Assembly: GCA_035516965.1 (NCBI GenBank)
Contig: DATIZR010000041.1
Span: 1 to 64,000 of the forward strand
Reading direction: 5' to 3'
Origin: Nitrospirota bacterium
GTDB taxonomy: Bacteria > Nitrospirota > UBA9217
Length of the DNA stretch: 64,000 bases
A program made the position numbers and the translations under genes. How positions within the stretch are numbered: position 1 is the stretch's first letter; each line of letters starts with the position of its first letter. Below are positions 27,894 to 38,725 of the stretch, piece by piece. Below the pieces are notes generated by a model. That model did not search any database. It was not told the DNA's origin and saw nothing but the letters and a program-made list of their open reading frames with translations.

Positions 27894-28847
27894 ATGCTTT
27901 GCCCACAGTGCAAAATTGAGAACGAACCTGATGCCCGGTTCTGCAGTGAGTGCGGCTCCGCCATGCAGGAAGGACCGCAGGCGCCGTCAACGCTCAAGAC
28001 GCGGAGAGTCTATCTCTATGCTCTCCTGCTCGTCCCTGTTCTCGCCATTGCGGGCTGGATTGGCTACTATAAATATATTCTGCCCGGCGGAGTCGCGGCC
28101 GTTGTGAACGGAGAGACGATCAGCCTCCGCGAACTCGATGCCGAGGCGGCCCGCACAGCAGGCAGCCGCGAAGCGGTGGATGCCAGGCTCAGATACGCGG
28201 TCCTGAACTCGCTGATCACCCAGCGGCTGGTCCTGCAGGAAGCGCGCAAGGCAGGGGTCTCCGTCTCGCGCGAGGAGATCGCATCAACAGCGGCCCGAGC
28301 GCGGTCGGCGTCGGGTTTCGATGAGGCAGTGTTCAACCAGCGCGTGGTATCGCAGTACGGCAGCATGAAGGACTTCGAGCAGGCGGTCGAGCGAGGTCTG
28401 CTGGTCAACAAGTTCATCGAAGAAAAGGTTATCCCGGTGAGCGCCGATCCCCGCACGGGCCGGGCAGCCCTGGACCAGTGGCTGCAGGATCATACTGCTG
28501 CGGCTTCGGTCCGCGTCACGCTGGCCGAGCAGTGGTCCGGAGCAGGGTGCGGATGCTGCGGCAGCGGGGCCGGGGCTTCAACAGCCCCCCGGGCAGGGAG
28601 CGGCGGATGCCGGACAGCGAGGAGCGGGTGCGGCATGGCGAACCGGGGAGCGGCCCGTTCAACGGACCCGTTGAACGCGGGCGAGGCCGCGGACGCAGCG
28701 CTCCGGTACTGGCATGAAAAGCACGGGGCGGAGGCCGTATCCGCGAAGGTCATTGATTTCGGCTGTCATATGCAGGTGGACATCATCAAGGACACCAGAA
28801 TCATCAGCTCCCTCCGGTATCAGGGGGGAAGCATATCTGAACTGTAG
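27894..28847 (+). CDS. zinc-ribbon membrane protein with SurA-like domain and Cys-rich linker
   Basis: 317 residues. A cytoplasmic zinc ribbon (C3, C6, C17, C20) is followed by one membrane helix (about 41-58), then VNGETISLRELD and a helical region to about 200 that resembles the N-terminal domain of SurA/PrsA-type chaperones, without a prolyl-isomerase domain. Residues 215-250 form a low-complexity Gly/Ala/Cys linker with C219, C221, C222, C239 and C246. The C-terminal 55 residues (about 262-317) contain C291-H. GAGGAGGG precedes the ATG. The next gene shares the zinc-ribbon plus helix layout, so the two products probably sit together in the membrane. Role unknown; metal handling is inferred from context. 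Confidence 0.65.
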   Translation: MLCPQCKIENEPDARFCSECGSAMQEGPQAPSTLKTRRVYLYALLLVPVLAIAGWIGYYKYILPGGVAAVVNGETISLRELDAEAARTAGSREAVDARLRYAVLNSLITQRLVLQEARKAGVSVSREEIASTAARARSASGFDEAVFNQRVVSQYGSMKDFEQAVERGLLVNKFIEEKVIPVSADPRTGRAALDQWLQDHTAAASVRVTLAEQWSGAGCGCCGSGAGASTAPRAGSGGCRTARSGCGMANRGAARSTDPLNAGEAADAALRYWHEKHGAEAVSAKVIDFGCHMQVDIIKDTRIISSLRYQGGSISEL

Positions 28848-28862
28848 GGGAGGAAATGAAGC

Positions 28863-29495
28863 ATGAGCACGTGTGGAAAATGTGGTGCAGAATTAAAGGA
28901 GAGCGCCAGGTTCTGCAAGTCCTGCGGGACCGGTCAGTCGGGCGCATCGTTGCATGATAAAAAGGCCCGCGTCATGGGCCGGGAAAAGACCTGGGTGAAG
29001 CCCACCGTGATCGCGGCAGCCGTGGTCGCGGTCGTCGCGGGTGGCATCCTGTTCCAGCAGTTCCGTGCGGCGCGCATGGGAGGTCATCCCCTGTTCCCGC
29101 CCCATCGCGATGCATCGGCAAGGCTGACAAAGGCCGTGATGGTCACTCCCCAGAACGGCGACGTGCGCATCCCGATCGCGAGCGTCGAGGACGGCAGTGC
29201 CCATTTCTTCGCCTATGCGACGGGAGGCAAGACCGTCACCTTCTTCGTGATGAAGGCCTCCGACGGGAGCATCAGGACCGCCTTCGACGCCTGCGTGGCC
29301 TGCAATCATGCCAAGCTCGGCTACCGGCAGGAGGGGGACCTCGTGGTCTGCAACAACTGCGGCATGGGATTCACGCCCGCGGACATCGGCAAGCTGACCG
29401 GAGGCTGCAACCCTATCCCGGTTGAAAAGGCCGCAGACGGCCCGATGCTGGTGCTGAAGGCGAAGGATCTCGACTCCGGCGTGCAGTATTTTTAA
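28863..29495 (+). CDS. zinc-ribbon DUF2318 protein (FtrD-like, Cys-rich)
   Basis: 210 residues: zinc ribbon (C4, C7, C18, C21), membrane helix (about 46-66), then the DUF2318 domain with C144-V-A-C147, C163-N-N-C166 and C182, the set proposed to bind an iron-sulfur cluster or metal. DUF2318 proteins lie with FTR1/P19 iron uptake genes (FtrD of Brucella, the Cj1660 region of Campylobacter). Here FTR1 and P19 are not next to it; instead an FtsX-type permease and ATPase follow, as in the second half of the Campylobacter locus. Start overlaps a GGAGG region of the previous gene's end. Confidence 0.85.
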   Translation: MSTCGKCGAELKESARFCKSCGTGQSGASLHDKKARVMGREKTWVKPTVIAAAVVAVVAGGILFQQFRAARMGGHPLFPPHRDASARLTKAVMVTPQNGDVRIPIASVEDGSAHFFAYATGGKTVTFFVMKASDGSIRTAFDACVACNHAKLGYRQEGDLVVCNNCGMGFTPADIGKLTGGCNPIPVEKAADGPMLVLKAKDLDSGVQYF

Positions 29496-29535
29496 ATGGA
29501 ACGAGTCAAGGCAAGCTCTTAAAGAGACTGAAACC

Positions 29536-29606
29536 TGCCACAGAGCACACCGAACGCACAGAGTAAAGAATAATAAAATTATCTCTGTGTCCTCTGTGGT
29601 TAATAA
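29536..29606. repeat. palindromic CACAGAG/CTCTGTG repeat before the permease gene
   Basis: Left arm 29536-29563 (GCCACAGAGCACACCGAACG core) pairs with right arm 29582-29606 (TCTCTGTGTCCTCTGTGGTT). It is the same family as in the his cluster, showing that the element is not limited to that operon. The right arm ends 26 bp before the permease ATG. Confidence 0.7.
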
Positions 29607-29631
29607 AGTGGAGGCTTATCAAGGATAGCAT

Positions 29632-30798
29632 ATGAAGCTAATCGACATCTCGCTGAACAACCTCCTCCGCAAGAAAGGCCGCACCTTTTTCCTGGTCTCG
29701 GGACTCGCCATCGGCATCGGTGCCGCCGTTGCCATGACCTCGGTCGGCGACGCCATGAACCGCGAGGTGATGCATGCCTTGGACGAGTTCGGGGCGAACA
29801 TCCTCGTGCTTCCGGCATCGGAGGGCCTGCCGCTCTCCTACGGCGGCCTTACGGTCTCGGCAGTGAATACCGGCGGCAGGGAACTGACCACGATCGACGT
29901 GGACAAGATCCGGACGATCAAGAACCGGGAAAACATCAGCACCATTGCGCCGAAGCTCCTGGTCCAGACCGAGGTGAAGGGCACGAAGGTGCTGCTTGCG
30001 GGCGTCGATTTCAAGGCCGAGCGGAGGCTCAAGAAATGGTGGCGCATCGCGGCGGGCTTGAATCCCCAGGAGAGCGGCGAGGCGCTGATCGGCAAGGACG
30101 CGGCAGCACGGCTGCAGCTCGCACCCGGCGACCGGATCGCTCTCGGCCGGAATGGGTCCCTTCGCGTGGCGGGCGTGCTCGGCGCGACCGGCTCGCAGGA
30201 CGACGGCCTGATATTCGCGGACATGCAGTGGGTCCAGAAGCAGTTCAACAAGGGCAATTCCGTCAGCCTTATCGAGCTTTCGGCGCTCTGCAGCGGCTGT
30301 CCCATCGAGGACATGGTGACGCAGGTGAACAACGTTCTGCCCGGCGCCCGGGCCGTGGCGGTCAAGGAGACCGTCGAGCTCAAGATGCAGGCCATGCATT
30401 ACTTCCACAAGTTTTCGCTCGGGATCTCGGTGCTGCTCCTGATCGTGGCGGGCATGATCATCTTCTTCGCCATGACGGCGTCCGTGAAGGAGCGCGTGCA
30501 GGAGATCGGCCTGTTCCGCGCCATCGGGTTCCGCACCGGGCATATCATCCAGGTGCTGCTGATCGAGGCTTTTATCGTGAGCCTGCTGGCCGGCTTCGCG
30601 GGCTCCGTCATCGGGATCATCAGCCCCCGGTTCGTCGCGCCCTACCTCATGAACGCGTACAACCTGAAATTCGAGTTCGACCCGATGCTGGCCGTGGCCG
30701 CCCTTGCCGCATCGGTCTCGGTCGGGATCGTTGCGAGCGTTTACCCGGCGGTCCGCGCAGGCCGGCTTGATCCGGTCGAGGCGCTCAAAACGCTCTAA
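29632..30798 (+). CDS. ABC transporter permease, FtsX/MacB type
   Basis: 388 residues with one N-terminal helix (FFLVSGLAIGIGAAVAMTSVG), a large periplasmic MacB-like domain (about 45-255) and three C-terminal helices, including SVYPAVRAGRLDPVEALKTL at the end, the classic FtsX C-terminus. Works with the ATPase encoded 38 bp downstream. In the comparable Campylobacter locus such permeases accompany DUF2318 and P19 proteins in iron acquisition or periplasmic redox work. Mechanotransmission rather than solute transport is typical of this class. Confidence 0.9.
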   Translation: MKLIDISLNNLLRKKGRTFFLVSGLAIGIGAAVAMTSVGDAMNREVMHALDEFGANILVLPASEGLPLSYGGLTVSAVNTGGRELTTIDVDKIRTIKNRENISTIAPKLLVQTEVKGTKVLLAGVDFKAERRLKKWWRIAAGLNPQESGEALIGKDAAARLQLAPGDRIALGRNGSLRVAGVLGATGSQDDGLIFADMQWVQKQFNKGNSVSLIELSALCSGCPIEDMVTQVNNVLPGARAVAVKETVELKMQAMHYFHKFSLGISVLLLIVAGMIIFFAMTASVKERVQEIGLFRAIGFRTGHIIQVLLIEAFIVSLLAGFAGSVIGIISPRFVAPYLMNAYNLKFEFDPMLAVAALAASVSVGIVASVYPAVRAGRLDPVEALKTL

Positions 30799-30836
30799 GA
30801 ACGCGCCAGTTCAGGGCACAGAGTAAAGGAACCGTC

Positions 30837-31511
30837 ATGCCATTCATAGATCTGAACAATGTGAAGAAAATTTTCCACGCCGGCGACGAGGAATACGCTG
30901 CGCTCAAGGGCATCTCGCTCGGCATCGATACGGGCGAGTTCGTGGCCGTGATGGGGCCGTCGGGTTCGGGCAAGAGCACCCTGCTTTCGATCATGGGCGG
31001 CTTGAGCCACCCGACGTCGGGGTCCATTATTGTCGACGGGATCAGCCTTGGCAGCCTCGGGCAGAACAAGCTTTCAGACTTCCGCCGGGAGTACCTGGGT
31101 TTCGTGTTCCAGTCGTTCTATCTCGTGCCCTATCTTACGGCCGCCGAGAACGTGATGCTGCCGCTGGCGATCCAGCCGGGCCTGAACGGGGCCGCAAAGG
31201 CGAGGGCGATCGAAGCCCTCTCCCGGGTCGGTCTGGAAAGCAAGGCGGGACGGCTTCCGTCCCAGCTCTCGGGCGGCGAACAGGAACGCGTGGCGATCGC
31301 CCGGGCCATCGTGAACAATCCGGCGCTCATCCTTGCCGATGAACCCACGGGCAACCTCGATACGAAGACCGGCGACAAGGTGCTGGAGATGCTGGAGGGC
31401 CTTCACGCGGAAGGTCACACCATCGTCATGGTGACGCACAGCAGAGAGAATGCGAAGAGGGCGGGAAGGACCATCGAGATCAGGGATGGGGAAGTGGTGG
31501 ATGGAACGTGA
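30837..31511 (+). CDS. ABC transporter ATPase, LolD/MacB type
   Basis: 224 residues with Walker A (GPSGSGKST), Q loop ([14 protein letters not shown]), signature ([14 protein letters not shown]) and Walker B ([12 protein letters not shown]). It energises the permease encoded just upstream. AAAGGA lies before the ATG. Last gene of the DUF2318 operon; the 108-bp gap to 31619 holds nothing recognisable. Confidence 0.95.
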
Positions 31512-31619: not shown

Positions 31620-32282
31620 CTAAAACTCGAACAAAAATCCCGCGAGCAGGCTCTTCCCCCCGATATTGACCGACTGGCCTGGCGTGCTCGCCGTACCGGC
31701 AGTATCGACCATCACCCGCGTATATTTCGCCTCGAAGAACAGGTAGGTGTGATAGATCCCGTAGTCGCGGACCATGTTATTCGCCGCTTGCGGATCGAGG
31801 CCGTCCAACAGCAGCTGAAGCCCGCCCCTGACGTGATAGCCGTTCTCGGCCCCCCGGATAATTTCCTGATCCGTGATATCTTCCCGGTAGAATATCCTCG
31901 TCCAGCCTCCTCCTGCATACGGCACCAGCCACTGCTGCTCACTCAAAACGCCGCGGGCGAGCACAAACACATTCAGCGGGTAGAGGTCATACTTCACATT
32001 GCCGGAAAGAATGCCATGCACGGGAGCAAAGCCCTGCCCCGAGCCATGAACGAACGAGCCCTCAACACCTGCTTCCACCTGCCTAATTATTTTGTATGCA
32101 AGGGTGCCGCCGAATTCGGTCATATTCCTGCTGCCGTAAAACAGGGACCAGTTGTCAAGAGCGGGAATGAACCACCCGCCTTTCATCTCGAGAGACCAAT
32201 GGGGCCGTTCGTTCAGTTCATCTGCTGCGAAGGCGGCCGCGGGCAGAGCAACGAGGATCAGGACCAATACGAGCTTTTTCAA
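31620..32282 (-). CDS. outer-membrane beta-barrel protein
   Basis: 220 residues from a TTG at 32282 whose GGAGG lies 6 nt upstream; that start overlaps the previous stop as TTGA, so translation is coupled. Signal peptide about 1-22 (KKLVLVLILVALPAAAFA). The mature part alternates short amphipathic strands (WSLEMKGGWFIP, KYDLYPLNVFVLARG, YHTYLFFEAKYTRVM) and ends GFLFEF with a terminal Phe, the usual outer-membrane assembly signal. An eight-stranded OmpA/OmpW-sized barrel is likely. It may anchor or export partners for the secreted protein encoded before it; this is inference. Confidence 0.8.
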   Translation of the reverse strand: MKKLVLVLILVALPAAAFAADELNERPHWSLEMKGGWFIPALDNWSLFYGSRNMTEFGGTLAYKIIRQVEAGVEGSFVHGSGQGFAPVHGILSGNVKYDLYPLNVFVLARGVLSEQQWLVPYAGGGWTRIFYREDITDQEIIRGAENGYHVRGGLQLLLDGLDPQAANNMVRDYGIYHTYLFFEAKYTRVMVDTAGTASTPGQSVNIGGKSLLAGFLFEF

Positions 32283-34126
32283 CGCGCGCCTCCGCTTCGT
32301 AACGAATTTCTCCTCCGAATGATAAAGACCGGCAGCAGAACCAGACAGAACAGCGTCGCCATCTGGATTGGCAGCGGCGTATAGAGGAGGAAGTAGGCGC
32401 CTCCGAGCAGCGGCAACAGTGCGGCCCGGACCACAGGTTTGAGCCAGGGATGATTCGTTATGAAGGAAGCCGCTCCGGGACCGACGCGGTAATACCACTG
32501 GACAAAGGCCCTGCCCGGGCCGTTCGTCATCAGGAACCGGTCCCGGAACTCGCGCAACACCTGCACCTGGGGAGCCGAATAGTAACCATAGGCCGCCGTC
32601 GCGATGAAACAGCCCTTGTTCGGCAGGTTCGGATAGGGATTAATGCCTTCGGGAAACTCGCTCAGAACGTTTGATATTAAGCTTTCCAGGGGCGAACCGA
32701 CGGTAAACGGAATATCCGTAGAAAAAACACTCTCGTAGCTGATTCCCGGAACGGGTGATCCGCCGCTGTTGGTCGACGTCATCGCGATATGGTAAGTCGT
32801 CTGAGCAACGGCCGACACAGCCACATAATAGGTTTGTAAATTTGTCAGGCCCGGCAAGGTAAAGGGGCTGACGGTAGCGGGGAAAAACGGGGTCGTCGAC
32901 GTGGGCGCGGAAAACGGCGCGGTATCGTAATAAATTTTATACCCCGATGCTCCCGACGACATAACCCAACTGACCAGGAGGCTGTTGTTCATCGGGCTGA
33001 GCGCGAGAATCGTCGGTGGATCAGGCGTCGTCACTGCCAGGGAAACCAGGTTGCTTAAGGTCTGCGATGTCGTAGTAGCGCCGGAAACGGTGATGGGAGA
33101 CGTGCCTTCCGCGGCGTTGGTGCCAGTGTAAGTGGTGTCCGTTCCATAATACACATGATAGCCGCTGACCAAGTAGCTGTTATTCTGGATCCAGTTCAGA
33201 GAGACGGAAAACGATCCCGTCGTTTCCGATTTAAGACCTGCCACGGGGAGCGGCACCGTATCCGTGTCCGGACCGCCAAAGGCGCCCATGTCGAAGGTGC
33301 TGCTGTCAAAGAAGTTGGGGTAGCTGGGATTCCCACTGGGATTCCCCGAATTTTTGATGCAAGGTGATGCGGCCAGGAGATGGAAATCGCCGTTCAAGGC
33401 ATCGACAAAAAGAGGGTCCGTATTCTGCACCTGGGTGTTCGGAAATGAATGAGCATCCAGCAATACCCCGTCAGTCGTATTATTGAAATAATCATTGTAC
33501 GTGACATTGGCAGTCGGGACACCGGCCGGATTCGATATTGCCAACTGATTGCCGGAAAAAATATTATTCGTGACGATGATATCCTGGTCCCTGGTGATGG
33601 CCGAGCCGGCTTGATAAAAAACGTTATTAATGATTGAAGAATTCGGCGAGGCTGAAACCTGAACGCCTGTCGTTAGTCCGGTCCCAAATACATTGTTCGC
33701 AACTTTTACCTGGGAATTGTTCAATAAGCTGATGCCTGTATTTGCATTCTTGAACGTGAAATTCTTGATGGTGATGTTGCCCGTCACTCCACTGGCCGTA
33801 ATGATAGGCCCGCTGCTGGTTCCGATCAGGATCGTCCGCGATGTTTCGCGTCCAATGAGAGGAACATTGCTGATGAGCGTGATTGGGCCGCTGTAAGGAG
33901 TAGAGTTATTCGATTCAACGATGACTCGAAACGTGGTTGTCGTGGGGGTCGGACCGGTCAGCAGGTTGTTTGCGTAAGTGATCGCCGATTGAATCGTCGA
34001 AAAGTGGGTATTATCAGTCGTGACGTTAGGATCAACGAAGAGGTCAAGGGCCAGTGCTGTGACCGGAGTGAATGCGGCAAGAATAAGGACTGTAATTAAC
34101 GACCGCCTGAATAGAGTCATCTTCAT
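32279..34126 (-). CDS. secreted beta-helix/fibronectin protein with CFI-box C-terminus
   Basis: 615 residues from ATG 34126, with a signal peptide (about 1-27). Residues about 30-275 are a right-handed beta-helix rich in Asn, Thr and Ser (ANTGISLLNNSQVKV, NNIFSGNQL). Two fibronectin-type III-like domains follow (about 285-385 and 385-480). From C506 comes CFIATAAYG, then LREFRDRFLM, a YYR motif and FITNHP, the CFI-box C-terminal module, ended by one more membrane helix (about 586-603) and RRRN. The composition is clearly more A+T-rich than its neighbours, especially the beta-helix part. It is a surface or extracellular protein; ligand unknown. Confidence 0.8.
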   Translation of the reverse strand: MKMTLFRRSLITVLILAAFTPVTALALDLFVDPNVTTDNTHFSTIQSAITYANNLLTGPTPTTTTFRVIVESNNSTPYSGPITLISNVPLIGRETSRTILIGTSSGPIITASGVTGNITIKNFTFKNANTGISLLNNSQVKVANNVFGTGLTTGVQVSASPNSSIINNVFYQAGSAITRDQDIIVTNNIFSGNQLAISNPAGVPTANVTYNDYFNNTTDGVLLDAHSFPNTQVQNTDPLFVDALNGDFHLLAASPCIKNSGNPSGNPSYPNFFDSSTFDMGAFGGPDTDTVPLPVAGLKSETTGSFSVSLNWIQNNSYLVSGYHVYYGTDTTYTGTNAAEGTSPITVSGATTTSQTLSNLVSLAVTTPDPPTILALSPMNNSLLVSWVMSSGASGYKIYYDTAPFSAPTSTTPFFPATVSPFTLPGLTNLQTYYVAVSAVAQTTYHIAMTSTNSGGSPVPGISYESVFSTDIPFTVGSPLESLISNVLSEFPEGINPYPNLPNKGCFIATAAYGYYSAPQVQVLREFRDRFLMTNGPGRAFVQWYYRVGPGAASFITNHPWLKPVVRAALLPLLGGAYFLLYTPLPIQMATLFCLVLLPVFIIRRRNSLRSGGAR

Positions 34127-34242
34127 GAGCCCATCCCTTTTGTGCCAAATTTCCCTCACGATATCACAACATATGATAGAAAGTCAAAAAATTCCCCTTG
34201 GAAAGCCGACTATAAACATAAAATTATGTTAAGAAAAATAAT

Positions 34243-34271
34243 TTGGGTATTTGGTACTTTTGTGGTACAAT
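34243..34271 (+). promoter_or_regulatory. promoter for the NHL/transglutaminase-like gene
   Basis: TTGGGT at 34243-34248 and TACAAT at 34266-34271 with 17-bp spacing. A direct repeat TGGTAC (34252 and 34263 regions) overlaps the spacer and -10. It lies in the A+T-rich gap shared with the divergent beta-helix gene, so the two genes could be controlled together. Confidence 0.55.
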
Positions 34272-34359
34272 GAATGTGCTTATAACTTATCGAATGTCTC
34301 CGGCAGGAGGAGTGACCGGTCGTCACGGTTCTTTTCCCTCTGTCACTTCGGAGGAGCAC

Positions 34360-37300
34360 ATGAAGTGGACCACATTCAAGCGCAGCATTCCCATTTTTCT
34401 CATCCTGTTCCTTTCCTCACGATCATACGCCTACCAGCAGATCGAGTTTATCCGTGAGGGCGGCGAGCTCGATAAAAAGACAAGGCAGCACCAGCTGAAT
34501 GAGCCCCGGGCCGTAGCAATTTCCGGAGACAGGCTGTACGTGGCGGACTCCGACGCCCATCGCGTGGTTGTCATGGACCAGGCCGGGAAGACTGTCCTTT
34601 CCTGGGGCGCGAAAGGCGACAAGCCGGGCCAGTTCAAATCGCCGGCTGGCATCGCGATCGACGAACAGGGACTCGTCTACATTGCTGACACCGGGAACCA
34701 CCGGATCCAGGTGTTCGATGCTGAAGGCAGATCCATCCGCAGTTTCGGCGCAAAGGGGAGCGCTCCCCGCGAGTTCAACAGCCCTGCAGGGCTTTTCGCG
34801 CAGCGCGGCCTCCTGTACGTCGCTGACCGGGGGAACGGCCGCGTGCAGGTCCTGACCACCAACGGCATATTCGTGAGGCTGATCGAGGTGAAGAACAAGA
34901 ACGAGATGAAGGCTCCGGTGGCAGTCGCAGCGGATGTCCAGAACAAGATCTACGTGCTCGACCGGGACGGAAATTCGGTCAGGATCTTCGACCATGACGG
35001 CGTGCAGCTGGAGCAGTTCGGCACGAAGGGCAAGGGAAGTGAGGGCTTTAACTATCCCCAGGGGCTCGCCGTGGACCAGACCGGCAGCATCTTTGTGGCA
35101 GACACCGGGAACTATAAACTGAAGAAGTTCGATCCCCAGGGCAGGCTCGTGGCCTCCCTCGGCTCCGAGGGCAGCGGCCCGGGCCAGTTCCGCGAGGCGG
35201 CCGGCCTCGCCGTGGACAAGGACGGCAAAGTCTTTGTGCTCGACGCGGAAAAGCACACGTTCCAGGTGTTCACCTGCGAGATCGAGGGCAAGCCGGTCGT
35301 GCCTGCCTCTCCGCCGGCGATCGTTGAATTCGCCCGGGAGATCCCGGGAGAGGTGGCCGCCTTTGGCATGGACAAACGCGTGTATGGCCTGGCCGCCGAT
35401 TCGATCATCGCGGTCGGGGTGAGCGCGGGGCGCAGGATCGGGTCGCGGGGCAGCGAGCCGGGCATGTTCAACAATCCCCGCGGGCTTGCCCTGGACGCAT
35501 CGGGAAAGTTCTGGGTCGTCGATACGGGCAATGGCCGCCTGCAGAAGTTCAGCATCGAGGGGAACCTCCTGCAGGTGATCGGGAAGCCGGGTTCAGGGGA
35601 GGGAGAGTTCGATTCTCCCGGCAGCGTCGCCATCAGCCGCAAGGGTAATCTTTTTGTGGCTGACACGGGCAACAAGCGCGTGCAGGTGTTCAACGCCAGG
35701 GGCATGTTCCTCGGCATGTTCGGCAAGCCGGGCAAGCTCTCCGGCCAGTTCTCGGAACCCGCGGACATCACCGTCGACGCCGGCGAGCATGTCTACATCG
35801 CAGACCGCGGCAACAACAGGATCGCGAAATACGACAGCAACGGGACCCTCGTCTGGGAGGCGGGAAGGGCCGGGAAACAGGACGGCGAGTTCAGCAGCCC
35901 GTCGAATATCCTGGTCTCCCAGGACAACGAGGTCTTCGTGCTCGACGCCGGGAACGCGCGCGTCCAGGTATTCGACACGGACGGCAAGTTCCTTCGCGCC
36001 TTCGGCAGCGAGGGGAAGGGGCCGGGCGAGTTCAAGTCGCCCCAGGGCCTCGCCCTGGAGGGCGGCCTACGGCTCTACGTGGGCGACCGGGGCAACAACA
36101 GAGTGCAGGTCTTCACACTCCGCCAGACCCCGTCCGTGCCGCAGGACTTGATGACCCAGGCGCGCGTCAATGAGATACAGCTGGGCTGGAAGGGCGGCGG
36201 CGAGAGCTATCTCGAGCAGTATCATATCTACCGGGGCGAGTCGGCCGGGGGTCCGTTCCAGCTCGTTGGTACGGCCACGGACCCCTTCTTTGTAGACAGG
36301 GGCCTGCCCAGCGATAAGACCTTTTACTATCGCATCGCGAGCAAGGCAAAGGAGGGACATGAGAGCGCGGCTTCGACGATCGTCTCGGCCGTAACACCGA
36401 AGCTCATTCCCGCAGCTCCGAAAAAAGTTCGGATCGAGGCGCTCGAAAAGCAGGCAACGCTTTCCTGGCTCCCGAACCTCGAACCCTTTGTCGCCCACTA
36501 CCGAATCTACCGGACCAAGCAGCTGGCGTCGGGCTTCGAGCTGCTCGCTCAGGCTGACAGCACCCTGTTCATCGACAGCCCCCTCGCGGACGAGACCGTT
36601 TACTACTACCAGGTCACGGCCGTCGGAAAAGAAGGCGATGAAAGCCCGGCAGGCGAGGTCGTGTTCGCGTCCACTCCGAAAGCGTCGCTGACCGTGCCGC
36701 CGCTCGAGATCGCAACCATCGAGGTGGGCGCGATCTTCTCATCATCCTACAAGTACTACGAGTCCCATCCCGCGGGCAGGGTCGTCGTCAGGAACAATAC
36801 GGACAGCGCCTATCCCAAGGTCAAGCTGAGCTTCTCCATCAAGGATTTCATGGATTATCCGAGCGAGATCGAGATCGAACAGGTCCCCGCCAGGGAGCAG
36901 GTGGCGGTGCAGCTCAAGCCGGTGTTCAGCAACAGGATACTGGAGGTGACCGAAAACACGCCGGTCCAGAGCGAGATAGCTCTCACGTACTACATAGCGG
37001 GAGAAGCAAAACAAGTGACCCGGAGCTTCCCGGTGATGCTGTACGAACGGCATGCGATGGTCTGGGACCAGAAGGCCAAGCTGGGCGCCTTTGTGACGCC
37101 CAAGGACCCGCCGGTCGTTGACTTCAGCCGCGCCGTCATACGGCCCTACGTGGACACGAACCCCAATCTGCATCAGTCGCTGGTCTATGCGCGCGCCCTG
37201 TATGACGCGCTCGGCGTGCTCGGCCTCAAGTACATTGTGGACCCGACCAGTCCGTTCCAGGAATTCTCCGAGAAGCCGGCGAGCGTCGACTATCTCGCGT

Positions 37301-38157
37301 ACCCGCGCGACACGCTTTCGCGGAAAAGCGGGGACTGCGACGATCTCTCGATCCTGTTCGCGGCGTGCATGGAGGACATCGGGATCTCCACGGCGTTCAT
37401 TGATGTTCCGGGGCACGTGTTCGTCATGTTCAACACGGGCGTGACGGAAAAGGACAAGGCAACACTGGGCTTTGACGACCAGATGATCGTATCGTACCAG
37501 GGAACGATCTGGATCCCCGTTGAGATGACCATGGTCGGGTCGTCGTTCACCCGGGCCTGGCAGAAGGGCGCCGAGGAATACCGGGACTGGTCGGCCAGGG
37601 GCAAGATCGACCTCATCGAAACGCAAAAGGCATGGGACGTGTTCAAGCCGGTCACGCTGCCGAACGGGGACTCGAAATCGGCCAGGGTGCCCCGGGAAGC
37701 GATCGAGGCCGCGTTCCCCGAGGAGCTCGAAGCGCTCGGAAGCCAGCGGCTTGCCCTCCTGTCAGCAGCATATGTCGCGCAGCTCAAGAAGGATCCGAAC
37801 GATGTTGCGGCCCTTGCCCAGCTCGGCATCCTGTACGGCGAGAACGGCCTCTATGCCGAGTCTCTCGTACAGTTCCAGAAGGTCCTTGCCCTTGATAAGA
37901 ACAGCGCGCTCGCGTACAACAATATCGGCAACGTCAGCTTCCTGCAGGAGCGGTATGAGGACGCCAGAAAGGCCTATGAAGCATCCCTTGCGGACTGTCC
38001 CGATGACACGGGCATCATGGCAAACCTGACCCGCGTCCTGCTGCGGCTTGGCAGGAAAGAGGAGGCGAAGAAGCTGTTCCAGAACGCCGCGGCTCTGGAT
38101 CCGCGTGTGCTGCGTCAGTGCGGCGATCTTGTCGCGAGTCTGGGGATCGTGCAATAG
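34360..38157 (+). CDS. secreted NHL-repeat / fibronectin III / transglutaminase-like / TPR protein
   Basis: 1265 residues; start at 34360 has GGAGGA just upstream and a signal peptide (about 1-25). About 11-12 NHL repeats (residues about 40-590, typical unit VADTGNxRxQVF) can form two six-bladed propellers. Two fibronectin III domains follow (about 590-690, 690-785), then a beta-rich region and a transglutaminase-like core at about 960-1080 with C993 (GDCDDLS), H1019 (GHVFVMF) and a third site in WIPVEMT, where the usual Asp is Glu. Two or three TPR units close it (about 1150-1265). The order suggests an envelope protein that binds a partner and cleaves or links it. Neighbour is the CFI-box protein, divergently encoded. 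Confidence 0.85.
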   Translation: MKWTTFKRSIPIFLILFLSSRSYAYQQIEFIREGGELDKKTRQHQLNEPRAVAISGDRLYVADSDAHRVVVMDQAGKTVLSWGAKGDKPGQFKSPAGIAIDEQGLVYIADTGNHRIQVFDAEGRSIRSFGAKGSAPREFNSPAGLFAQRGLLYVADRGNGRVQVLTTNGIFVRLIEVKNKNEMKAPVAVAADVQNKIYVLDRDGNSVRIFDHDGVQLEQFGTKGKGSEGFNYPQGLAVDQTGSIFVADTGNYKLKKFDPQGRLVASLGSEGSGPGQFREAAGLAVDKDGKVFVLDAEKHTFQVFTCEIEGKPVVPASPPAIVEFAREIPGEVAAFGMDKRVYGLAADSIIAVGVSAGRRIGSRGSEPGMFNNPRGLALDASGKFWVVDTGNGRLQKFSIEGNLLQVIGKPGSGEGEFDSPGSVAISRKGNLFVADTGNKRVQVFNARGMFLGMFGKPGKLSGQFSEPADITVDAGEHVYIADRGNNRIAKYDSNGTLVWEAGRAGKQDGEFSSPSNILVSQDNEVFVLDAGNARVQVFDTDGKFLRAFGSEGKGPGEFKSPQGLALEGGLRLYVGDRGNNRVQVFTLRQTPSVPQDLMTQARVNEIQLGWKGGGESYLEQYHIYRGESAGGPFQLVGTATDPFFVDRGLPSDKTFYYRIASKAKEGHESAASTIVSAVTPKLIPAAPKKVRIEALEKQATLSWLPNLEPFVAHYRIYRTKQLASGFELLAQADSTLFIDSPLADETVYYYQVTAVGKEGDESPAGEVVFASTPKASLTVPPLEIATIEVGAIFSSSYKYYESHPAGRVVVRNNTDSAYPKVKLSFSIKDFMDYPSEIEIEQVPAREQVAVQLKPVFSNRILEVTENTPVQSEIALTYYIAGEAKQVTRSFPVMLYERHAMVWDQKAKLGAFVTPKDPPVVDFSRAVIRPYVDTNPNLHQSLVYARALYDALGVLGLKYIVDPTSPFQEFSEKPASVDYLAYPRDTLSRKSGDCDDLSILFAACMEDIGISTAFIDVPGHVFVMFNTGVTEKDKATLGFDDQMIVSYQGTIWIPVEMTMVGSSFTRAWQKGAEEYRDWSARGKIDLIETQKAWDVFKPVTLPNGDSKSARVPREAIEAAFPEELEALGSQRLALLSAAYVAQLKKDPNDVAALAQLGILYGENGLYAESLVQFQKVLALDKNSALAYNNIGNVSFLQERYEDARKAYEASLADCPDDTGIMANLTRVLLRLGRKEEAKKLFQNAAALDPRVLRQCGDLVASLGIVQ

Positions 38158-38269
38158 AAAAGTAGTGAGTTCGGAGCGTGGAACGAATCGGATGAAAAAG
38201 GAGCACTTTGCGGATTATTTTCTCCGGACCTCGAACTCCGAACCTTATGCAAAAAAACGGGAGGCTACT

Positions 38270-38725
38270 ATGAAAAAAGTGTTTTTTGTCATTCTGATGC
38301 TCATCCTGTCCGGCAGCATGGTCCTCGCCCTTGAACAGGAAAAGAGATCGGGGTCTGTTATGACCGACTGGCTCAAGAGCCTGCAGCAGAAGATCGCCCA
38401 GCTTGTGCCGAAGAAGTCAATGCCGATGAGCACCAGCGTCGCCGGAGTGCGCGGCGGCAGGGAAAACAGCCAGGCGGCGCTCTACTGGAAGGGGAAAAAG
38501 GGCGACGAGGCCGTGAGCGAGGAGGAGCTGACCGAGTTTAAGGATGGGCTTGAAGCCATCGAGAAGGGCGATGGCCCAAAGGCCATCCATGAGCTGGAAG
38601 AATTTATGAAGCTGTACCCGGACAGCGTGCTGATCCCCGATGTCAAGAAGACGCTGGACCTGGTGAAGGCGGAGCCACTAAAACCGGAAGAGAAGAGGGA
38701 AGAGCAGAAGGAAGAGCAGAAGTAA
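38270..38725 (+). CDS. small exported protein with a TPR-like C-terminus
   Basis: 151 residues with signal peptide (about 1-21) from the ATG at 38270, which has GGGAGG 7 nt upstream. The C-terminal half (ELTEFKDGLEAIEKGDGPKA, then a second helix pair) looks like a single TPR-type pair, and the end is Lys/Glu-rich. Same strand and 112 bp after the NHL/TPR gene, so likely its partner. Function unknown. The gap upstream holds a short inverted repeat, GTTCGGAG/CTCCGAAC (38169-38243). Confidence 0.7.
   Translation: MKKVFFVILMLILSGSMVLALEQEKRSGSVMTDWLKSLQQKIAQLVPKKSMPMSTSVAGVRGGRENSQAALYWKGKKGDEAVSEEELTEFKDGLEAIEKGDGPKAIHELEEFMKLYPDSVLIPDVKKTLDLVKAEPLKPEEKREEQKEEQK

What the first reader, a model, noticed from the sequence alone, without database searches (positions are those of the whole stretch)
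31620..38725. Divergent envelope locus: outer-membrane barrel, CFI-box protein, NHL/transglutaminase-like protein
Seen: four exported proteins in one block, with fibronectin III domains on both large ones, TTGA-coupled translation of barrel and beta-helix protein, and divergent transcription from one gap. Inference: a surface system in which the transglutaminase-like protein cuts or links the CFI-box protein and the barrel assists its export or anchoring. I do not know of a described system with this set.
Basis: partly seen in the sequence, partly recalled or inferred. Interest (0 to 1): 0.5.

Follow-up and report, generated by a model that had tools for sequence, protein, structure and literature searches.

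The report
Surface protein with built-in membrane-barrel partner
In many bacteria an exported protein with a cysteine-marked tail is made together with, or even joined to, one small outer-membrane barrel, probably as a matched pair for displaying the protein on the cell surface.

Summary
The block is real, but its core is two genes, not four. A beta-helix/FN3 protein ending in a CFI-box-CTERM tail (NF041770) overlaps by four bases (TTGA) with an 8-strand MXAN_2562-family barrel (NF040596). Searching by the barrel model in three samples (245, 345 and 274 genomes) gave 40 barrels: 33 lie directly downstream of a full CFI box, 6 of a reduced Cys box recognised by eye, 1 at a contig end. In eight cases passenger, tag and barrel are one reading frame, with a second signal-peptide-like stretch before the barrel. 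Three of these carry a short Cys-TM-Arg tag instead of the CFI domain, and several passengers match NCBIfam's MYXO-CTERM-anchored 'MXAN_2561 family', which suggests a natural tag swap. The closest known system is TraA/TraB of Myxococcus. The transglutaminase-like gene is a lineage-specific neighbour: 8 of 16 Nitrospirota barrel genomes lack a strong relative. Neither a CPBP (myxosortase-type) protease nor an exosortase tracks the system. Surface display, Cys maturation and physical contact are inferred, not shown.

The parts
32279..34126 (-). Passenger: signal peptide, parallel beta-helix, FN3, CFI-box-CTERM tail (615 aa)
   Evidence: Beta_helix 43.9 bits, fn3 29.4 bits, NF041770 99.8 bits
33425..33781 (-). 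Right-handed beta-helix region (residues 116-234)
   Evidence: PF13229
32798..33019 (-). FN3 domain (best of two stretches)
   Evidence: PF00041
32408..32611 (-). CFI-box-CTERM domain; starts at the invariant Cys of GCFIATAAYG
   Evidence: NF041770; AF2 model all helical, mean pLDDT 90.9
32294..32374 (-). Last helix of the tail (model residues 90-116), putative transmembrane anchor running into the Arg-rich C-terminus
   Evidence: orientation inferred from the single-ORF relatives
32279..32282 (-). TTGA overlap: stop of passenger, candidate start of barrel
31620..32282 (-). MXAN_2562-family 8-strand outer-membrane beta-barrel (220 aa with signal peptide)
   Evidence: NF040596 127.3 bits; AF2 mean pLDDT 87.6, 8 long strands; Foldseek to OmpA/OmpX/OmpW/NspA
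34127..34359 (.). Divergent intergenic gap
   Evidence: same divergent order in relatives L051, L055, L056, L066
34360..38157 (+). NHL propeller / FN3 / transglutaminase-like / TPR protein; lineage-specific neighbour, probably not part of the core module
38270..38725 (+). Small exported protein (151 aa) following the TGase-like gene; a similar small exported ORF follows it in relative L066

Best explanation
A two-part display module that works like TraA/TraB of Myxococcus. The passenger goes through Sec, folds in the periplasm, and is held at the inner membrane by its helical CFI tail with the Arg-rich end in the cytoplasm. The invariant Cys at the membrane face marks the site where it is matured (lipidated and/or cut) or handed on, possibly to the type II secretion system. 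The barrel, made 1:1 with it by stop/start overlap or as one chain released by signal peptidase, goes into the outer membrane and is the passenger's dedicated docking partner there. Shown here: pairing of the barrel with a Cys-box passenger in all resolvable cases, overlap or fusion, and different tags at the same place between FN3 passenger and barrel. Inferred: contact, surface location, Cys chemistry, T2SS route. The transglutaminase-like gene is a family-specific neighbour.
For: Nitrospirota: 16 of 17 barrels downstream of a CFI hit on the same strand, the 17th near a contig end with the CFI gene of that genome at another contig's end. Phylum of Geomonas sp. Red32: 13 barrels, 7 after a full CFI domain, 6 after a reduced Cys box. 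Class of a Gammaproteobacteria record: 10 of 10 after a full CFI domain. A barrel-frame start codon overlaps the passenger's stop by four bases in 12 of 16 Nitrospirota pairs (candidate starts). Eight single-ORF passenger-tag-barrel chains with a second signal-peptide-like stretch between Arg cluster and barrel. Three of them carry a short Cys-TM-Arg tag instead of the CFI domain. Five of nine scanned relatives (L226, L227, L231, L232, L158) match NF045522 'MXAN_2561 family MXYO-CTERM-anchored protein' at E 1.6e-7 to 9.3e-15. CFI genes without barrel lie inside T2SS gene clusters in nine loci. Published parallels: traA/traB overlap by four bases (PMC3325183, passages), TraA:TraB 1:1 (PMC12045341, passages), MXAN_5598 with an internal MYXO-CTERM followed by a barrel (PMC11980579, discussion).
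Against: No localisation or biochemical data. Known sorting enzymes do not track it: CPBP in 25 of 52 CFI genomes against 123 of 186 CFI-free ones, and no match in 5 of 16 barrel genomes (two of these five only 85% and 74% complete); exosortase in 4 of 14 family genomes. Rhomboid is too common to judge. The tail models as a confident folded helical domain, which fits a lasting anchor as well as a discarded tag. CFI domains occur in Chloroflexota-named loci (15 of 80), which have no outer membrane by general knowledge. L227, L231 and L232 keep the Cys box but have only 20-30 residues after it and no TM. No invariant Cys in the barrel alignment. The six reduced boxes were recognised by eye: none scores with NF041770, and the short tags of L228-L230 are not scored by any MYXO-CTERM model either. 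The NF045522 matches are all below its cut-off and lie on the FN3-to-linker part, so common FN3 ancestry could explain part of them; L228, L230 and L131 have none. The T2SS secretin model hits 239 of 245 genomes, so presence at that level does not discriminate.
Confidence: 0.55

Rival explanations
1. Envelope-spanning tether: the CFI tail is a permanent inner-membrane anchor, nothing is cleaved or lipidated, and the passenger spans the periplasm to dock on the barrel, linking the two membranes or gating the barrel.
For: Tail is a well-predicted helical domain; no CPBP or exosortase association; CFI domains also in Chloroflexota-named loci.
Against: L227, L231, L232 keep the Cys box but no TM; a much shorter Cys-TM-Arg tag in L228-L230; several relatives' passengers resemble a family NCBI names as MYXO-CTERM-anchored.
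Confidence: 0.25
2. One reading: the transglutaminase-like protein cuts or crosslinks the CFI-box protein.
For: Conserved divergent neighbourhood in the home family: same contig in G000, G015, G041, G048, G053, G068 (broken frame in G068), and cut by a contig end in G076; catalytic-type residues largely conserved.
Against: 8 of 16 Nitrospirota barrel genomes lack a strong relative; none in the fetched flanks of the 80 named CFI loci; present in G032 and G100 away from their CFI genes.
Confidence: 0.07
3. Autotransporter-like: the barrel itself carries the passenger across the outer membrane.
For: Single-ORF forms end in the barrel.
Against: Only 8 strands, OmpA/OmpX/OmpW class; a hydrophobic anchor, Arg cluster and second signal-peptide-like stretch lie between passenger and barrel; separate ORFs in most cases.
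Confidence: 0.05
4. Co-expressed but functionally separate envelope proteins kept together by operon inheritance.
For: Barrel-linked CFI tails cluster on the tree: 12 label changes against 36.3 in shuffles.
Against: Pairing, overlap or fusion in three samples from different phyla and with different tags.
Confidence: 0.08

Closest known systems
TraA/TraB of Myxococcus xanthus
   Same: Exported passenger with C-terminal Cys-TM-Arg tag; downstream gene overlaps by four bases and encodes an outer-membrane barrel protein; 1:1 complex (PMC3325183 and PMC12045341, passages).
   Different: TraA has a PA14-like domain, Cys-rich repeats and MYXO-CTERM; TraB carries an OmpA cell-wall domain. Here beta-helix/FN3, CFI box, and a barrel without OmpA domain.
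MXAN_2561 / MXAN_2562 (NCBIfam NF045522 / NF040596)
   Same: Same barrel family; some relatives' passengers match the MXAN_2561 model over the FN3-to-linker region. That the two are neighbours in M. xanthus is inferred from consecutive locus tags, not seen.
   Different: Named MYXO-CTERM-anchored there; CFI box here. The window's own passenger does not reach NF045522 at E<=0.1.
MXAN_5598
   Same: Internal sorting tag followed by a barrel in one ORF (PMC11980579, discussion).
   Different: MYXO-CTERM tag and OmpA domain.
MYXO-CTERM / myxosortase MrtX
   Same: Invariant Cys, TM helix, Arg-rich cytoplasmic end (PMC11980579); T2SS link there, T2SS gene clusters around some CFI genes here.
   Different: CFI tail is a folded helical domain of about 105 residues; no CPBP association.
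GlyGly-CTERM / rhombosortase
   Same: C-terminal tag on T2SS-exported surface proteins (abstracts in listings).
   Different: Gly/Ser-rich motif (listing); absence of an invariant Cys is recalled.

Membership tests
MXAN_2562 family barrel (NF040596) | Model score over curated cut-off | tested here: met
   127.3 bits against 100
CFI-box-CTERM (NF041770) | Model score over curated cut-off near the C-terminus | tested here: met
   99.8 bits against 40, residues 506-573 of 615
MXAN_2561 family (NF045522) | Model score over cut-off 150 | tested here: not met
   P0002 not listed at E<=0.1; six of nine relatives 19-55 bits, below cut-off, three without a match at E<=1
MYXO-CTERM / myxosortase system | Invariant Cys, TM helix, Arg-rich end | tested here: met
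   Sequence, alignment and model; TM assignment by eye
MYXO-CTERM / myxosortase system | NCBIfam MYXO-CTERM model (TIGR03901, named in PMC11980579) hits the tail | tested here: not met
   No such hit in P0002 at E<=0.1 nor in nine relatives at E<=1
MYXO-CTERM / myxosortase system | CPBP-type sorting protease in the same genome | tested here: not met
   Own genome has one PF02517 match, but 5 of 16 Nitrospirota barrel genomes have none (three of them 97-100% complete); 25 of 52 CFI genomes have one
MYXO-CTERM / myxosortase system | Cys lipidation and cleavage | not testable with these tools
   -
TraA/TraB | Overlapping passenger-barrel gene pair | tested here: met
   TTGA overlap
TraA/TraB | OmpA cell-wall domain on the barrel protein | tested here: not met
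   No Pfam hit in P0001 at E<=0.1
PEP-CTERM / exosortase | Exosortase in genomes that carry the pair | tested here: not met
   PF09721 in 4 of 14 family genomes at E<=0.001, 3 over cut-off; the window's genome is one of the 4
Autotransporter (type V) | Passenger and barrel one chain | tested here: not met
   Separate ORFs in the window; barrel of 8 strands
CFI domain as a known fold | Match to a solved structure | tested here: inconclusive
   Foldseek best E 7.2; VIA-align best Z 3.2

The most novel reading that the evidence does not exclude
The CFI box is a general C-terminal, Cys-dependent sorting and anchoring device used across diderm and possibly monoderm phyla, processed by a so far unidentified enzyme that is neither CPBP nor exosortase, and in one branch it is coupled to a dedicated outer-membrane docking barrel, with the tag interchangeable with a MYXO-like tag.
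Probability: 0.4. Interest if true: 0.75.

Novelty: new variant of a known kind. Interest (0 to 1): 0.55.

Why it matters
It gives two families that NCBIfam names without a function (CFI-box-CTERM and the MXAN_2562 barrel) a joint, testable role, and it suggests that the TraA/TraB layout is not special to myxobacteria but recurs in Nitrospirota, Geomonas relatives and Gammaproteobacteria. The single-ORF forms and the different tags fix the likely topology and offer natural constructs for finding the processing enzyme.

Tried and rejected
TGase-like gene as part of the core: rejected on distribution. CPBP myxosortase as a required processing enzyme: rejected on distribution. Exosortase: rejected on distribution in the home family. 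Rhomboid: cannot tell, in 13 of 14 family genomes and in all 14 controls. T2SS secretin as a co-occurrence marker: matches 239 of 245 genomes at E<=0.001; 107 are over the model's cut-off, which I did not cross-tabulate with CFI. A joint alignment of single-ORF and separate rows (A3) misaligned the barrel-only rows and was not used; tail and barrel were modelled apart, so no interface was predicted. Solved-structure sequence search with the TGase region: nothing at E<=1. Fold search with the CFI tail: nothing useful in PDB. The weak antiphage_ProA match of the TGase-like protein led to no relevant paper. Paper searches for CFI-box-CTERM, MXAN_2562 and the CFIATAAYG letters found none in the open-licence library; a combined search for MXAN_2561, three accessions, CFI-box and MXAN_5598 found two papers, both for MXAN_5598 only. 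L135, the nearest row to the window on the tail tree, has no barrel in its short, disrupted downstream region. L186 is titled Streptomyces griseus, which is probably a mislabelled MAG. In counting T2SS clusters I left out L093 (one weak GspE match) and L179 (GspE and GspF about 4 kb away).
Full report
WHAT IS THERE. The four ORFs are confirmed. NCBIfam and Pfam give an MXAN_2562-family outer-membrane barrel (127.3 bits, cut-off 100), a beta-helix protein with a CFI-box-CTERM tail (99.8 bits, cut-off 40), a 1265-residue NHL/transglutaminase-like/TPR protein and a small exported protein; fn3 is over threshold in both large proteins. Passenger and barrel overlap in TTGA. The genome gives a single CFI-box match. 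The phylum is taken to be Nitrospirota because two relatives' contigs, G033:C172 and G024:C64, have the same lengths as contigs titled Nitrospirae (L130, L143).

PAIRING. I searched whole genomes with the barrel model and then asked what lies upstream. In 245 genomes of the home phylum there are 17 barrels in 16 genomes. By coordinates 16 follow a CFI hit on the same strand; in G041 the gap is 679 bases and holds an ORF on the other strand. The last, in G053, lies near the end of a contig of 8090 bases, and the CFI gene of that genome ends at the edge of another contig. In 345 genomes of the phylum of G246 (Geomonas sp. Red32) there are 13 barrels, 7 over the model's cut-off: those 7 follow a full CFI domain, the 6 below cut-off a reduced Cys box that I recognised by eye and that the CFI model does not score. 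In 274 genomes of the class of G249 (a record titled Gammaproteobacteria) 10 of 10 follow a full CFI domain. Three of these 40 (the window, one in G246, one in G249) are seeds, and the two outside groups were chosen because CFI-barrel loci had been seen there. The reverse does not hold: CFI boxes occur in 59 of 245 home-phylum genomes (52 over cut-off), barrels in 16.

OVERLAP AND FUSION. In 12 of 16 home-phylum pairs examined a start codon in the barrel frame overlaps the passenger's stop by four bases (candidate starts, not proven; in L060 the barrel frame is broken). In Geomonas silvestris (L131), L152, L158, L222 and L223 passenger, CFI tail and barrel are one ORF; between the Arg cluster after the last tail helix and the barrel stands a second signal-peptide-like stretch. 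The simplest reading is a polyprotein cut by signal peptidase; it puts the tail's C-terminus in the cytoplasm and gives equal dose. L228-L230 are single ORFs with a much shorter Cys, hydrophobic, Arg tag in the place of the CFI domain.

TAG SWAP. Of nine relatives scanned, L226, L227, L231, L232 and L158 match NF045522, 'MXAN_2561 family MXYO-CTERM-anchored protein', at E 1.6e-7 to 9.3e-15 and L229 at 9.3e-4, all below its cut-off of 150 bits; L228, L230 and L131 do not match. The matched part is the FN3 and linker up to the box, so shared FN3 ancestry may account for part of it; in L158 it covers model positions 20-279 of 304. With the name of the barrel family this suggests that MXAN_2561/MXAN_2562 of Myxococcus is the same module with a MYXO-CTERM tag (inference from consecutive locus tags; I could not fetch that genome, and the MYXO-CTERM model itself scored in none of the nine). 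The recurring parts are FN3, a G-C-F-[IVL]-x-[ST]-like box and the barrel; the N-terminal part is a beta-helix or a beta-propeller. L226 is a variant (GCFVAA), and G156 has CFIASLAFG.

STRUCTURE. The CFI tail models as five helices at mean pLDDT 90.9 from 73 sequences, the box itself being the first helix; no useful PDB match. The barrel models with eight long strands (mean pLDDT 87.6, 12 sequences) and matches OmpA, OmpX, OmpW and NspA folds. It is too small to pass a folded passenger (general knowledge), so docking is likelier than transport.

T2SS. CFI genes without barrel lie within type II secretion gene clusters in nine loci (L090, L095, L105, L113, L116, L118, L119, L120, L177) out of 151 loci with a CFI motif; the 151 include duplicates and related species, and L113 and L118 are one genus. 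[quoted passage not shown] abstract, introduction and part 1 of 2 of the discussion read). No barrel-linked locus shows T2SS genes in its fetched flanks, and the secretin model at E<=0.001 is too widespread to test co-occurrence.

ENZYMES. CPBP proteases match in 25 of 52 CFI genomes and 123 of 186 CFI-free ones, and not in G005, G015, G048, G063 and G080, which carry the pair (completeness 100, 97, 97, 85 and 74%). Exosortase matches in 4 of 14 family genomes, the window's included. So the known Cys-tag protease is not required; either another enzyme acts or the tail stays.

TRANSGLUTAMINASE-LIKE GENE. Of 245 genomes 19 have some match and 12 a strong one: ten of the home family, of which seven show the divergent order beside the CFI gene (G068 with a broken frame, G076 cut by a contig end), and G032 and G100, where it is away from CFI genes. 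Eight of 16 barrel genomes lack a strong relative, and no named CFI locus carries it in its fetched flanks.

COMPARISON. traA and traB overlap by four bases and act together (PMC3325183, passages); TraA and TraB form 1:1 complexes (PMC12045341, passages); MXAN_5598 has an internal MYXO-CTERM followed by a barrel (PMC11980579). The module here has this layout with another tag, another passenger and a smaller barrel without OmpA domain. It works like TraA/TraB by layout; it is not a member.

LIMITS. No experiment was possible. Signal peptides, TM segments and reduced boxes were judged by eye. Many genomes are MAGs with broken contigs. Chloroflexota-named loci with CFI domains (15 of 80) may be true or mis-binned. 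The tail tree has few columns for its 171 rows.

Noticed in passing
window 27894-31511: A SurA-like/zinc-ribbon ORF, a DUF2318-like ORF and a MacB/FtsX-type ABC transporter (named by eye) lie next to the barrel; similar ABC or zinc-ribbon ORFs lie by the barrel in relatives L050, L057 and L059.
   Followed up: partly
L076 and L102 (also L199): Two CFI genes in a row followed by a much diverged barrel-like gene (E about 1e-7 to the barrel profile).
   Followed up: partly
L090, L095, L105, L113, L116, L118, L119, L120, L177: CFI-box genes inside type II secretion gene clusters, beside GspF and pseudopilins or between GspK and a GspL/PilM-like gene.
   Followed up: partly
window 36760-37659: Region before and within the TGase-like domain matches NCBIfam 'anti-phage protein ProA' (NF058533) at E 2.9e-13, 48.2 bits against a cut-off of 1500.
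   Followed up: no
L075, L077, L108: The gene just upstream of the CFI gene ends in a similar GVCLI(A/G)(A/S)L C-terminus in three loci.
   Followed up: no
L138, L146, L147, L154, L159 and other loci: CFI-box tails of one distinct type (CFIATAAYGTPMA) in loci titled Dehalococcoidia or Chloroflexi, and in one titled Rhodobacteraceae.
   Followed up: no
G000:C21:54512-55255: The window's genome has a strong exosortase (EpsH) match; 10 of 14 family genomes have none and two others only weak ones.
   Followed up: no
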